NCBI GenBank assembly: GCA_003242085.1
Contig: QBML01000011.1
Location: 1 to 64,000, forward strand
From: Pseudanabaena frigida
GTDB taxonomy: Bacteria; Cyanobacteriota; Cyanobacteriia; Pseudanabaenales; Pseudanabaenaceae
Reading direction: 5' to 3'
DNA: 64,000 bases
Part shown: positions 14,585-18,614 of the stretch, piece by piece
Layout of the letters: every line of letters starts with the position of its first letter
Numbering within the stretch: the first letter of the stretch is position 1
Program-made: the position numbers and the translations under genes
Notes under the pieces: model-generated
Told to the model about the DNA's origin: nothing
Seen by the model: the letters and a program-made list of their open reading frames with translations, nothing else
The model's database searches: none

Positions 14585-14998
14585 TCAATTTCTCATCAAA
14601 GGATTGTAACCTGCTTGTTCAAAGTGTTTATCGTAGGCAAGAGCTTCAGAAATTCCCATATCTTCCATTATTTTGAACGATACACAATCTGTGTGACTCC
14701 ATGCTTTGTCTTTGCGTTGTTGGTATAACCTCAAGCCTTGTTCAAATTGCTCACTGGTTTGGGGAACAATGCGAACATTAGGGTTAGAACGCAAGTTTTG
14801 AGTTAGCTCTATGGCTAAGTCACGAAAATACTCACCGCGCTTAGAGAAGTCGTTTAAAACTTCGATGAGTACGGCTTCACTGGTAACAATGTAGACGGGA
14901 TGCAATGTTTTTGATAGATGAGCAGCTTTTTTATGCAAATTATCACTAGGGTTAAGTAGGGCAACCCAATAACCTGTATCGGCGAAAACGACTCTCAC
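14585..14998 (-). CDS. PIN-domain ribonuclease toxin (VapC-like)
   Basis: 137 residues with the acidic PIN residues in place: Asp7 (VFADTGYW), Glu46 (VLIEVLND), Asp104 (SHTDCVSF) and Asp123 (AYDKHFEQAG). PIN toxins cut RNA, often tRNA, and are neutralised by a partner encoded just upstream. The GTG start shares one base with the TAG stop of the specificity-subunit gene (TAGTG), so translation is coupled. No separate antitoxin gene exists; the C-terminal 60 residues of the upstream protein look like one. It is the third gene of the restriction-modification operon. Confidence 0.88.
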   Translation of the reverse strand: MRVVFADTGYWVALLNPSDNLHKKAAHLSKTLHPVYIVTSEAVLIEVLNDFSKRGEYFRDLAIELTQNLRSNPNVRIVPQTSEQFEQGLRLYQQRKDKAWSHTDCVSFKIMEDMGISEALAYDKHFEQAGYNPLMRN

Positions 14999-16638
14999 TA
15001 ACTATCCTGTTGCTGTTGATAATGGTCAAAGTTTTGGGCTAAGTCTTTTGGTAGTTTTGCCCATTCTTCATTGGGAACTTTGGCAGACAGTCGGGCGGCT
15101 AATTCCCAGATTGGTTCTGCATTATAGTCAAATTTAATATTTGCTAAAGAGAATCTCTCGATAGGTGTTTGATTATTCATAGGTGTATTTGATTTAGAAG
15201 AAATTAGTTTTTCTAATTTAGAAATTGCTTCTTGTTCATTGCGCCAAGCCTGATCGCGTAGTTGGTTAGCTTTGAGAACTAGATCGCCAATTTCATTTCT
15301 AATAGCTGGCTTAGGTAATGGAATATGGACAGAAGCAAGCATAAATCGGTCAAATTCAAGAATTACTGAACCATAAGCGTGACGAGTCATGAGACTGTAT
15401 CCGTAATCTGAAGCTAACCAAGCATAGAGATATCCAGCATTAATATCATCTGAAGCTAACAAACGATTAGCGTGTTGATTAGCTGTCCAGTTTTCCATGT
15501 ACTTAGGAATGATTTGTACTCGCCCAATTGTGCCTGAGCAGGTAACAGCAATCATATTTTCTTCGAGCTGAATTTCGGGCAGGTCTTTTGTATGTGCGCC
15601 TTTTGCTAACTTTTTAACATCAATTGGATCGACTTGAAAAAGCTGCTTACTACTTAATAGCGGAATTCCACCTTTTTCGACATAGGTTCGCGCTCGGAAT
15701 CTTGTAATTGCTCTAACTTCTTTGGTAACTCGCCGATCGCCAATTTTAGTCATTTCAACAGGTAATTTCGCTAATTGTTTTTCAGCAGCGATCGCTTCGG
15801 GATTGTGAAAACTGCCCTCTAAGCGTCCCATCAATTGTGAGGCTTTGATTGTAGTCGTAAAAGACGCACTACCACGCGGAGCAATATCTTTGAGATAAGG
15901 TAAGTTTAAACGTTCATGGAGAGAGCGATCGGCTTCATCTAACAAATGATTTGCTTCATCACGCAATTTAACGGCTTCACACATTAATCGTCCAATCTCA
16001 ATTTGACGGATTGGCGGTAAATCTGGAATTAAAACTCTGTCAAGGTGTTTAGGTTCAATATGGACAATAACTGAACCGTAAGTAGCTTGAGCTAACTGTG
16101 GACGGCCATATCGACTTCTTAAAAATGCTGATATGTAGCCCGCTATATCAGCATTGCTTGACCGTAAGCGTATTGCATCTTGAGATAATGCTTTTCCTGT
16201 AAATATTTCTCCCGCTAAACTAACGTTTCCAATTGTTCCAGAGCAAGAGATTAAAACATCCCATTTTTGAATTAGTAAATAATTTAATTTTTGTGTATAT
16301 TTACGACTTAAAAAACGTTCATTTCTTAGGCGTATACTAATAATGTCTGAACCCAGAAGAAACGGAATACCATGTTCAGCGTCTACATAAATTCTCTTGA
16401 AACGAAAAGCGTTATGTGCTTCTTGACAAAGACCACCTTCACCATAAAGAGGGATGAGAGGTAAACCACTATTTGTCAAAGCTGTAACTGCATTATGAGC
16501 CTCAATGCTAAAAGCAGAAGCCTCTAATCGCACACCCGCAGCAAATACTTCACTGAGTTTGATAGTCGTTGACAATTTCTCCGACTCATCATCAGGTATC
16601 TCTGGCGTGTAATCAGGTTTAAAAGCGTAACTTACCAT
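14998..16638 (-). CDS. hsdS: Type I/IIB specificity subunit (HsdS-like) with antitoxin-like C-terminus
   Basis: About 546 residues from the ATG at 16638, which overlaps the methyltransferase stop by seven bases. It has two target-recognition domains, each with the HsdS signature: ISCSGTIGNVSLAGEIFTGK ... YGSVIVHIEPKHLDRVLIPD, and VTCSGTIGRVQIIPKYMENW ... YGSVILEFDRFMLASVHIPL. Each is followed by a helical spacer (IGRLMCEAVKLRDEANHLLD). It should set the DNA sequence recognised by the RM partner. The last 60 residues, starting at an internal Met (MNNQTPIERF, ATG at 15178-15180) and including NEEWAKLPKDLAQNFDHYQ, do not belong to HsdS. They resemble short cyanobacterial antitoxins paired with PIN toxins. 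No good ribosome site precedes this Met. Confidence 0.85.
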   Translation of the reverse strand: MVSYAFKPDYTPEIPDDESEKLSTTIKLSEVFAAGVRLEASAFSIEAHNAVTALTNSGLPLIPLYGEGGLCQEAHNAFRFKRIYVDAEHGIPFLLGSDIISIRLRNERFLSRKYTQKLNYLLIQKWDVLISCSGTIGNVSLAGEIFTGKALSQDAIRLRSSNADIAGYISAFLRSRYGRPQLAQATYGSVIVHIEPKHLDRVLIPDLPPIRQIEIGRLMCEAVKLRDEANHLLDEADRSLHERLNLPYLKDIAPRGSASFTTTIKASQLMGRLEGSFHNPEAIAAEKQLAKLPVEMTKIGDRRVTKEVRAITRFRARTYVEKGGIPLLSSKQLFQVDPIDVKKLAKGAHTKDLPEIQLEENMIAVTCSGTIGRVQIIPKYMENWTANQHANRLLASDDINAGYLYAWLASDYGYSLMTRHAYGSVILEFDRFMLASVHIPLPKPAIRNEIGDLVLKANQLRDQAWRNEQEAISKLEKLISSKSNTPMNNQTPIERFSLANIKFDYNAEPIWELAARLSAKVPNEEWAKLPKDLAQNFDHYQQQQDS

Positions 16639-18614
16639 CCTAGTACCACCTTTTTCTTCCAATCGATAAACTCATTAGCTACCAAATCCGTATCATCGTC
16701 TTCAACTTTCTGGCGCGGTAGCGGTCTAGCCACACCTTCACCCGTTGCTGTTCGCTCAATCAAAGGGATTGAATTTGGATTAGTAGGAACCAGTATCTCC
16801 TCACCCTCCTCATTACGTCTGTATGTGATATTACCTCGCTTATCATGCCCGATCGCCTTCACCTGCGCCATAAATATTTCATAATCAGGCATTGTTCCTT
16901 GATCGATTTCCTTTTCAGTCTTCTTCTGAAGAATCAAAACCGAAGTTTGTGTTCCATTGCGCGGTTGGAAAGTGTCAGGATGCAGGTCAATCGAAGCAAC
17001 AATTCGGCAATGCTTAATTAACCAATACCGCACATAAAGCAACCCAGGAGCGCCCAAAATTGCATCAGGTAAAACTATTCCCATCCGTCCCTCTGGCTTC
17101 AAAAATTGCCAGCATCGTTCAATAAATAGGATTTCGGGAGATGCTGAGCCTTGAAGTTGTTCTGTAGGCTCCCAACCAGACTCAGTTTCTTTCCAAACAT
17201 GGGCAAGCTGATATTGCTTTAAGGTTTCTTCATCCTTAATGGGTAACTTTGAACCAAAAGGCGGATTCGTTGCAATTACATCAAAACGAGCTAAATCCTT
17301 GGGATTGCGTAGCTCTTTAGGGTCAACGTCTAAGGCTTTAGCAAACTGCTTACGAAAACTATCTTCCCATTGATGAGGATGCAACAAAGAATCTTGTCTA
17401 AGAATGTTTCCAGATCCGTCATTGTTCATCACCATATTCATTTTGGTAGCTTTAACTAAATCTGGATTAATATCAATTCCAAAGAAATTGACTTTAGCCG
17501 TATCTCTAATTTTTGAATTTAGTGCATCCTTCATCCAAACATCTGACTTTTCATTTACTCCAGCTTGTTGGCTTAATTTTTCAATGACTTCATTCATTGC
17601 GATTACCAGAAATCCACCCGTTCCACAGGATTGATCGAGAATCCTATCTGTGATTTTTGGCGCAAGCATCCTAATTGTCATTTTCTGAACATTTCTTGGT
17701 GTAAAAAACTCACCGCGATCGCCTCTTAAATTTGCGCCAACAAGCTCTTCATAGGCTTTCCCCTTAACATCAATATTCGTACTCAAAAAGCTATAGCGTT
17801 GAAGCTCACCGATAATATAGGCTAAAGAACGAGGTTGAAGTTTAATCTCATCATTCGCATCAAAAATAGCAGGATATTGCTTTTTAACTGCACTAAAAAT
17901 TTTACTAATACGATTGAAAACAGTTAATCGACCATCATTACTCTTTTTTTCCTTTGCCGTTGCATAAAATTCTAAGGGATTAGGAAAATTGCGCTCATCA
18001 TGAATCTTGCAAAAAATAACCTTTAAAAGCTCAAAAAAAGCAGGTTGTTTTTGTAGCCCGTCAGTTACATAAATATGATCGTGACAAATCTTAAAAGAAA
18101 ACAGTAAATTATCGCCAACTGCATTCTTTAAAGCGTCACGAGTTGGGCGATCAACTTCCTCAACATTGCCATTTTTGGAAGGGATATCATTAGGCTCTTC
18201 ATACTCAATGCCTTCCTCTGTTCTAATGCGGCGCAAAACAGTTTTTTTCTTGCCGTTTGTCCACATTCCCCATTCAGAGTTATCACAAGCCGCCATATAA
18301 GATCGAAGTTGCTCAATCCCGTCTTTACTAGCAGATGGCGATATCGAGTCTTTTTTGCATTCGATAATAATCCAAATATTTTCCTGATTATGTTGATCGC
18401 CCTCACGGAAAATAGCCAGATCGACTCGAACAGTCTTACTACCTTGTTTAATTGGATACTCAACCTCGATCTGCTCTGGCAAATAGCCTAACTCCATCAC
18501 CAAACGACGCTCGATGTTTTGACGAACATACTCTTCGGGCGTATCGTTACGGATTTTCTGATCTATGAAATCACAGACCTTACCATCTGGAAGTGTTGCT
18601 AAGAGCTTAGACAT
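16632..18614 (-). CDS. hsdM: Fused restriction nuclease / N6-adenine DNA methyltransferase (RM subunit)
   Basis: 660 residues. The N-terminal domain (about 1-130) is an HsdR_N-like PD-(D/E)xK fold with Asp65 (VRVDLAIF) and Glu85-x-Lys87 (IIIECKK). The rest is a type I-style gamma-class methyltransferase: helical N-terminal part, GEFFTPRNVQK, motif I DQSCGTGGFL (327-336) and motif IV NPPF (450-453). Cleavage and methylation would thus be in one chain, directed by the overlapping S subunit. The arrangement RM plus S, without a DEAD-box HsdR, resembles the type IIB BcgI system. Alternatively a distant hsdR exists elsewhere and the N-terminal domain is regulatory. It is the first gene of the operon. 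Confidence 0.88.
   Translation of the reverse strand: MSKLLATLPDGKVCDFIDQKIRNDTPEEYVRQNIERRLVMELGYLPEQIEVEYPIKQGSKTVRVDLAIFREGDQHNQENIWIIIECKKDSISPSASKDGIEQLRSYMAACDNSEWGMWTNGKKKTVLRRIRTEEGIEYEEPNDIPSKNGNVEEVDRPTRDALKNAVGDNLLFSFKICHDHIYVTDGLQKQPAFFELLKVIFCKIHDERNFPNPLEFYATAKEKKSNDGRLTVFNRISKIFSAVKKQYPAIFDANDEIKLQPRSLAYIIGELQRYSFLSTNIDVKGKAYEELVGANLRGDRGEFFTPRNVQKMTIRMLAPKITDRILDQSCGTGGFLVIAMNEVIEKLSQQAGVNEKSDVWMKDALNSKIRDTAKVNFFGIDINPDLVKATKMNMVMNNDGSGNILRQDSLLHPHQWEDSFRKQFAKALDVDPKELRNPKDLARFDVIATNPPFGSKLPIKDEETLKQYQLAHVWKETESGWEPTEQLQGSASPEILFIERCWQFLKPEGRMGIVLPDAILGAPGLLYVRYWLIKHCRIVASIDLHPDTFQPRNGTQTSVLILQKKTEKEIDQGTMPDYEIFMAQVKAIGHDKRGNITYRRNEEGEEILVPTNPNSIPLIERTATGEGVARPLPRQKVEDDDTDLVANEFIDWKKKVVLGW

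What the first reader, a model, noticed from the sequence alone, without database searches (positions are those of the whole stretch)
14585..15180. HsdS-like subunit carries a PIN-toxin antitoxin at its C-terminus
The last 60 residues of the specificity subunit (from the internal ATG at 15178-15180) look like short cyanobacterial antitoxins, with P-I-W-E-L-A...P-N-E-E-W-A-K-L-P-x-D-L...F-D-H-Y. The very next gene, overlapping by one base, is a PIN toxin with all acidic residues and no other antitoxin. This would couple a restriction-modification system to a toxin: loss of the RM complex would free the toxin. No good ribosome site precedes the internal Met, favouring a true fusion.
Basis: partly seen in the sequence, partly recalled or inferred. 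Interest (0 to 1): 0.75.

Follow-up and report, generated by a model that had tools for sequence, protein, structure and literature searches.

The report
Restriction subunit carrying a toxin's antidote
In some cyanobacteria the DNA-recognition protein of a restriction-modification system ends in what looks like the antidote to an RNA-cutting toxin made by the next gene, and some phages of the bloom-former Microcystis carry a free copy of that same antidote, which suggests a booby-trapped antiviral defence and a viral answer to it.

Summary
Confirmed, and stronger than stated. Window 14998-16662(-) encodes a complete HsdS-like (MAD5-like) specificity subunit plus a 60-residue tail; the next gene, overlapping by one base, is a VapC20-like PIN protein. 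The tail recurs as the C-terminus of short stand-alone antitoxin-like genes: 22 of 30 tail-selected loci have a PIN directly downstream, and 30 of 30 PIN-selected loci have a tail directly upstream. Twelve distinct M–S::tail–PIN operons were found; five S relatives without the tail have no such PIN beside them. Two operons lack any ATG/GTG/TTG in the last 81 codons, so there the tail is made only as a fusion. The tail's divergence follows PIN (r 0.93) better than S (0.46). One genome lost M and most of S but kept S-start::tail–PIN in frame. Microcystis phages (Ma-LMM01, MaMV-DL01/02, 13 viral contigs) encode exactly this tail as an intact 61-aa gene without S or PIN, while sister phages lack it: a probable decoy antitoxin. 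Best reading: an antitoxin tethered to a modification complex, guarding or addicting the cell to it. Neutralisation, toxicity, RNA target and release trigger are inferred, not shown. Eight of 30 tail-selected loci have no PIN directly downstream, and selection within phages is not demonstrated.

The parts
16632..18614 (-). M subunit, 660 aa: HSDR_N_2-like N-terminus with a D...E-x-K motif, N6-adenine methylase core with NPPF; MAD2-like, nearest solved sequence RM.BsaXI
14998..16662 (-). S::tail, 554-aa specificity subunit (MAD5-like) with C-terminal antitoxin-like tail; start TTG 16662 or ATG 16638
16005..16364 (-). first hypervariable stretch of S (likely first target recognition domain)
   Evidence: 63-83% DNA identity between close relatives; naming as recognition domain is inference
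15375..15734 (-). second variable stretch of S (likely second target recognition domain)
   Evidence: 74-82% against Microcystis
15199..15309 (-). second long conserved helix, where tail-less S relatives end
   Evidence: model residues 444-480; Roseofilum S ends at residue 490
15148..15192 (-). disordered linker between S and tail
   Evidence: model residues 483-497, pLDDT under 50
15001..15180 (-). antitoxin-like tail, 60 aa (PIWELA...VPNEEWAKLPKDL...FDHY)
15178..15180 (-). internal ATG at which the phage copy of the tail starts
14585..14998 (-). VapC20-like PIN protein, 137 aa, predicted ribonuclease toxin

Best explanation
The last 60 residues of S are the toxin-neutralising half of a type II antitoxin whose own N-terminal half has been replaced by a whole DNA-specificity subunit. 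The M–S modification (possibly restriction) complex thereby holds a VapC20-like PIN ribonuclease in check. Shown by sequence: the fusion, the three-gene operon, tail–PIN co-inheritance, and a free tail gene in lytic phages. Inferred: the tail binds and silences PIN; PIN cuts an essential RNA (by its nearest solved relative, perhaps the 23S sarcin-ricin loop); when the M–S complex is lost, inhibited, degraded or not resupplied during phage takeover, PIN is freed and the infected cell stops translating. Some Microcystis phages answer with a captured free copy of the tail.
For: Tail homologues stand upstream of PIN genes (22 of 30 tail-selected loci; 30 of 30 PIN-selected loci). 12 of 12 tailed S genes are followed by PIN. 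Tail identity tracks PIN (r 0.93, partial 0.92 given S) rather than S core (0.46); G103 and G045 share 94% of S core but carry tail and PIN of different lineages. G244 lost M and most of S but kept S-start::tail–PIN in frame. No start codon near the junction in two members. Model of S: complete subunit, disordered linker, separate helical tail. PIN fold closest to VapC20. Phage stand-alone tail without S or PIN, ORF intact in 15 of 15 copies read, absent from sister phages.
Against: Nothing here shows binding, toxicity or phage defence. 8 of 30 tail-selected loci have no PIN directly downstream, two of them with strong tails (L016 before a Cap4 nuclease gene, L017). Tail and PIN are neighbours on the DNA, so linkage alone could give part of the correlation. 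In the PIN tree two stand-alone PINs nest among fused ones, and support is modest. Tail helices have low model confidence. Within phages 7 codons vary by replacement and 2 silently, so selection in the phage is not shown; the 10 silent differences between phage and Microcystis copies may predate capture. M may itself carry a nuclease site, so PIN need not be the effector.
Confidence: 0.6

Rival explanations
1. Active sensing: the M–S::tail complex is a sensor. Binding unmodified phage DNA or a phage anti-restriction protein changes the complex and releases PIN, which acts as the effector in place of a separate HsdR.
For: No HsdR-like gene among the flanking ORFs scanned and none over the HsdR cut-off in the window's own genome; variable recognition stretches show S is an active, diversifying reader; phages carry the tail.
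Against: No evidence for a DNA-triggered change; M may already hold a nuclease site; four of six genomes checked have HsdR elsewhere.
Confidence: 0.2
2. Pure addiction: the fusion only makes the methylase genes hard to lose; phage infection is not sensed.
For: The operon sits in varied neighbourhoods of sporadic hosts (3 of 12 Microcystis genomes; 7 of 388 class genomes); G244 lost M and S but kept the tail with PIN.
Against: A lytic phage gains nothing obvious from carrying the antitoxin unless PIN acts during infection.
Confidence: 0.2
3. The tail is normally made as a separate small antitoxin from the internal ATG, and the open frame into S is incidental.
For: Internal ATG present in five members including the window; phage genes start at exactly this Met; low silent divergence in the tail between window and Microcystis could reflect an overlapping signal.
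Against: G103 and HT58-2 have no ATG, GTG or TTG in the last 81 codons; no Shine-Dalgarno-like stretch before the ATG.
Confidence: 0.12
4. S replaces the antitoxin's DNA-binding half mainly to autoregulate the operon.
For: N-termini of this antitoxin family are exchangeable; antitoxins often pair a DNA-binding with a neutralising part (recalled knowledge).
Against: Recognition stretches differ between near-identical operons, which fits a fixed operator poorly; operators were not searched for.
Confidence: 0.07

Closest known systems
EcoprrI–PrrC (type IC RM with anticodon nuclease); passages in PMC12707154
   Same: An RNA-cutting toxin encoded with an RM system and activated when the RM enzyme is inhibited by a phage protein.
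   Different: Here the toxin is a PIN protein and the link is an antitoxin tail covalently joined to the specificity subunit; activation is not shown.
Type II VapBC toxin-antitoxin modules, VapC20 as nearest solved toxin
   Same: PIN toxin preceded by an overlapping antitoxin-like gene.
   Different: The antitoxin's N-terminal part is a complete DNA-specificity subunit instead of a short domain.
RptR–RMS–DarTG2 island; passages in PMC12255303
   Same: A toxin-antitoxin pair encoded within an RM operon.
   Different: Separate genes lying between hsdS and hsdR; no antitoxin–HsdS fusion in the passages seen.
AdfB of phage ICP1 against DarTG; abstract of PMC11481870
   Same: A lytic phage encodes a functional antitoxin against a host toxin-antitoxin defence.
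   Different: Here the phage gene looks like a direct copy of part of the host fusion gene; its function is untested.
ASCH–HsdS fusion in Methanohalophilus; passage in PMC7641849
   Same: A domain of a PIN-GNAT-EVE toxin operon fused to HsdS.
   Different: There ASCH is proposed to read modified bases, not to neutralise the toxin.
MADS (MAD2/MAD5) and type II RM enzymes such as BsaXI
   Same: M and S are homologous to MAD2 and MAD5, and M to RM.BsaXI.
   Different: Both score below the MADS cut-offs and no other MAD gene was found beside them; tail and PIN are additional.

Membership tests
Type II toxin-antitoxin (VapBC-like) | PIN-fold toxin with conserved acidic residues | tested here: met
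Type II toxin-antitoxin (VapBC-like) | antitoxin gene directly upstream, usually overlapping the toxin gene | tested here: met
   one-base overlap in the window; upstream tail genes in 30 of 30 PIN-selected loci
Type II toxin-antitoxin (VapBC-like) | toxin inhibits growth and is neutralised by binding of the antitoxin protein | not testable with these tools
   needs expression and binding assays
RM guard systems (PrrC, PARIS) | toxin encoded together with an RM system | tested here: met
   12 of 12 tailed S genes
RM guard systems (PrrC, PARIS) | toxin released or activated when the RM system is inhibited | not testable with these tools
   no functional data; the phage tail gene is indirect support only
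MADS | MAD2 and MAD5 above NCBIfam cut-offs | tested here: not met
   M 611 bits under 720, S 340 under 400
MADS | other MAD genes in the locus | tested here: not met
   10 flanking ORFs of the window, no MAD family
Type I RM | HsdR gene with M and S | tested here: not met
   none in the window's flanks or among 19 flanking ORFs of 10 other operons scanned with Pfam (not every flank was scanned); none over cut-off in the own genome
Type IIB/IIG-like RM (BsaXI, BcgI) | nuclease and methylase in one subunit plus S | tested here: inconclusive
   D...E-x-K motif kept in 12 of 12 M proteins; BsaXI match covers the methylase part; activity unknown; BcgI is recalled

The most novel reading that the evidence does not exclude
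A modification/restriction complex physically arms a ribosome-cutting PIN toxin through its specificity subunit, so that phage interference with the complex (or unmodified DNA bound by it) triggers abortive infection, and Ma-LMM01-type Microcystis phages have excised exactly that antitoxin segment and carry it as a counter-defence gene.
Probability: 0.4. Interest if true: 0.85.

Novelty: new variant of a known kind. Interest (0 to 1): 0.72.

Why it matters
It would be a covalent link between a restriction-modification system and a toxin-antitoxin system, making the guard idea known from PrrC and PARIS testable with three genes, and it comes with a candidate phage counter-gene that hints at an arms race in bloom-forming Microcystis. 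It would also give a function to a 61-aa phage ORF that is unannotated in Ma-LMM01 and 'hypothetical' in MaMV-DL01.

Tried and rejected
Rejected: chance resemblance of the tail; tail as a normal part of the S family (five tail-less S relatives); MADS membership; internal-start-only reading for all members. Withdrawn on re-check: a statement that the phage copies are under purifying selection. Phage and Microcystis copies differ by 10 silent and 1-4 replacement changes (three phage copies against one host copy), but those silent changes are shared by the phages tested and may predate capture; among 8 distinct phage copies 7 codons vary by replacement and 2 silently. The probability of the novel case was lowered from 0.45 to 0.40 for this reason. 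Also added on re-check: 8 of 30 tail-selected loci have no PIN directly downstream.

Led nowhere: Pfam, NCBIfam, PHROGs and PDB sequences gave no name for the tail; the tail is not on plasmids; one MADS literature search was swamped by unrelated papers, and the exact phrase gave 3 papers, seen as a listing, none on this system by title. Papers: listings; passages by 'find' in PMC10865869, PMC2701414, PMC12707154, PMC5780444, PMC7641849 and PMC12255303; abstract and section list of PMC11481870. That no antitoxin–HsdS fusion is in print rests in an open-access library only. BcgI, Ocr and the general layout of antitoxins are recalled.

Full report
What is there. On the minus strand the window holds a three-gene operon: M (18614-16632), S (16662-14998) and PIN (14998-14585). 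As listed, M and S overlap by 31 bases and S and PIN by one. M has an HSDR_N_2-like N-terminus and an N6-adenine methylase core; S is a specificity subunit; they are relatives of MAD2 and MAD5 but below those families' cut-offs. M's nearest solved sequence is RM.BsaXI over its methylase part, and a D...E-x-K motif in its N-terminus is kept in 12 of 12 operon members, so M may be a combined nuclease-methylase; this is untested. No HsdR or MAD gene is among 10 flanking ORFs of the window, nor an HsdR-like family among 19 flanking ORFs of ten other operons (one protein belongs to the tail-less Roseofilum locus, and not every flank was scanned). The window's own genome has no HsdR over the family cut-off, whereas four of six operon genomes do, elsewhere.

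The tail. The AlphaFold model of S (mean pLDDT 76.6) shows a full specificity subunit ending in its second long helix (model residues 444-480), a disordered linker (483-497) and three short helices (within 510-545, low confidence). S relatives without the tail end just after that helix: Roseofilum (69% identical, last residue 490) and a Skermanella plasmid (55%), with no homologue of this PIN following; the Skermanella one has a ParDE pair beside it on the other strand. Three more distant cyanobacterial S proteins also lack the tail and the PIN.

How common. S was searched in 97 relatives (4 genomes hit at E<=1e-20, 3 with the tail) and in 388 genomes of the class (10 hit at E<=1e-40, 7 with the tail). 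That makes 12 distinct tailed S genes, each followed directly by a PIN gene; in CCP3 that PIN is 117 aa and altered after residue 105, and in one Microcystis the tail loses its last six residues to a stop. Of 12 Microcystis genomes 3 carry the operon. In the S tree the fused proteins form one group, support 76/95.

The tail is probably an antitoxin half. Selected on the tail (34 matches in 97 genomes, 30 with a locus), 22 of 30 loci have a PIN directly downstream. The eight others are L002, L016, L017, L022, L026, L032, L035 and L036; L016 has a Cap4 nuclease gene instead, L026 looks broken in both parts, and L036 has a PIN about 300 bases further on. Selected on PIN (96 of 388 genomes at E<=1e-25; the 30 best loci examined), the upstream gene ends in the tail motif in 30 of 30, with N-termini of several short types or S itself. 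A tail profile hits 31 of 522 ORFs in those loci, all directly upstream of a PIN (30 by script, L095); some of these sequences had gone into the profile. Among the 12 fused members tail identity follows PIN (r=0.93) rather than the S core (r=0.46; partial r=0.92); G103 and G045 have 94% identical S cores but tail and PIN of different lineages, as if exchanged as one block. Linkage on the DNA explains part of this. In G244, M and most of S are gone, yet the first ~50 residues of S are joined in frame to the tail and PIN is whole; this is what one expects if the tail cannot be lost while PIN works, though an assembly error is not excluded. In G103 and HT58-2 no ATG, GTG or TTG occurs in the last 81 codons, so there the tail is made only as part of S.

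The toxin. The PIN model (pLDDT 94.9) matches VapC20 best (TM-score 0.85, 30% identity; sequence E 4.3e-10). The PDB title calls VapC20 a sarcin-ricin-loop-cleaving toxin, so a ribosomal target is a fair guess, no more.

The phage copy. The tail was found in phage records only in Microcystis phage LMM01 (two records), MaMV-DL01 and MaMV-DL02, and in 14 viral contigs (the same number with a tail profile). In LMM01, DL01 and 13 contigs, all read here, it is an intact 61-aa ORF starting exactly at the Met found inside S, with no S, M or PIN in the fetched stretch; it overlaps an anti-repressor gene in the neighbourhoods listed. DL02 was judged by the tables. The 14th contig (L063) holds an S remnant, an intact tail and a PIN interrupted by a stop; a scan with PIN found no other viral contig. 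Phage DNA matches host DNA from that ATG to near the end of the tail, including linker residues special to this S clade, so the likely donor was the fusion. Three phage copies differ from one Microcystis copy by 10 silent and 1-4 replacement changes, but among 8 distinct phage copies 7 codons vary by replacement and 2 silently, so constraint within the phages is not shown. Sister phages MaMV-DC, CH01 and DH01 lack the tail gene and part of the anti-repressor at that place, CH02 by the tables. This is the pattern of a gained or lost counter-defence gene.

Mechanism. Most likely S::tail within the M–S complex holds PIN inactive, and PIN is freed when the complex is lost, blocked or not renewed during infection; free tail from a phage would then mop up PIN. 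Shown: architecture, conservation, co-inheritance, phage gene. Inferred: binding, toxicity, RNA target, trigger. Pure addiction and DNA-sensing activation remain open.

Known or new. Guarding of an RM system by an RNA-cutting toxin is known (PrrC, passages), TA genes inside an RM operon are known, and phage antitoxin mimics are known. An antitoxin fused to a specificity subunit, and a phage copy cut from it, did not appear in the searches made, which cover an open-access library only. I therefore file it as a new variant of a known kind.

Noticed in passing
L016 1351-2801 (G005): The same antitoxin-type gene is followed, one base overlapping, by a Cap4-like nuclease gene (Pfam PF14130, E 4.7e-13) instead of a PIN.
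   Followed up: partly
window 15001-15180: Silent changes in the tail between the window and Microcystis are unusually few (2 of 54 codons against 117 of 395 in the S core; no core stretch as low), though PIN next door diverges normally. Overlapping signal or recent exchange; unexplained.
   Followed up: partly
L077 6001-6186 (phage LMM01): The phage tail has K instead of E at the near-invariant PIWE position and at one further conserved E, in some but not all phage copies.
   Followed up: no
L113 7300-8066 (G244): In-frame deletion joining the start of S to the tail, PIN intact, beside a separate HsdR-M-S-like gene set.
   Followed up: partly
L063 5001-5728: An 87-kb viral contig with an S remnant, intact tail and a PIN interrupted by an in-frame stop.
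   Followed up: no
L048 9576-9929 and L055 4147-5793: CCP3 PIN is shortened and altered after residue 105 near a contig end; one Microcystis tail loses its last six residues to a stop.
   Followed up: no
L060: A contig binned as an uncultured proteobacterium carries the whole operon: transfer beyond cyanobacteria, or a binning error.
   Followed up: no
window 16005-16364: Window and G027 differ strongly in the first variable stretch of S (68-81%) but are 96-98% identical in the second: a recognition-domain swap between close relatives.
   Followed up: no
L057 489-764 and L056 8233-8881: Other toxin-antitoxin-like genes flank the operon in Microcystis: a ParE-like gene upstream and a second small gene plus PIN downstream.
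   Followed up: no
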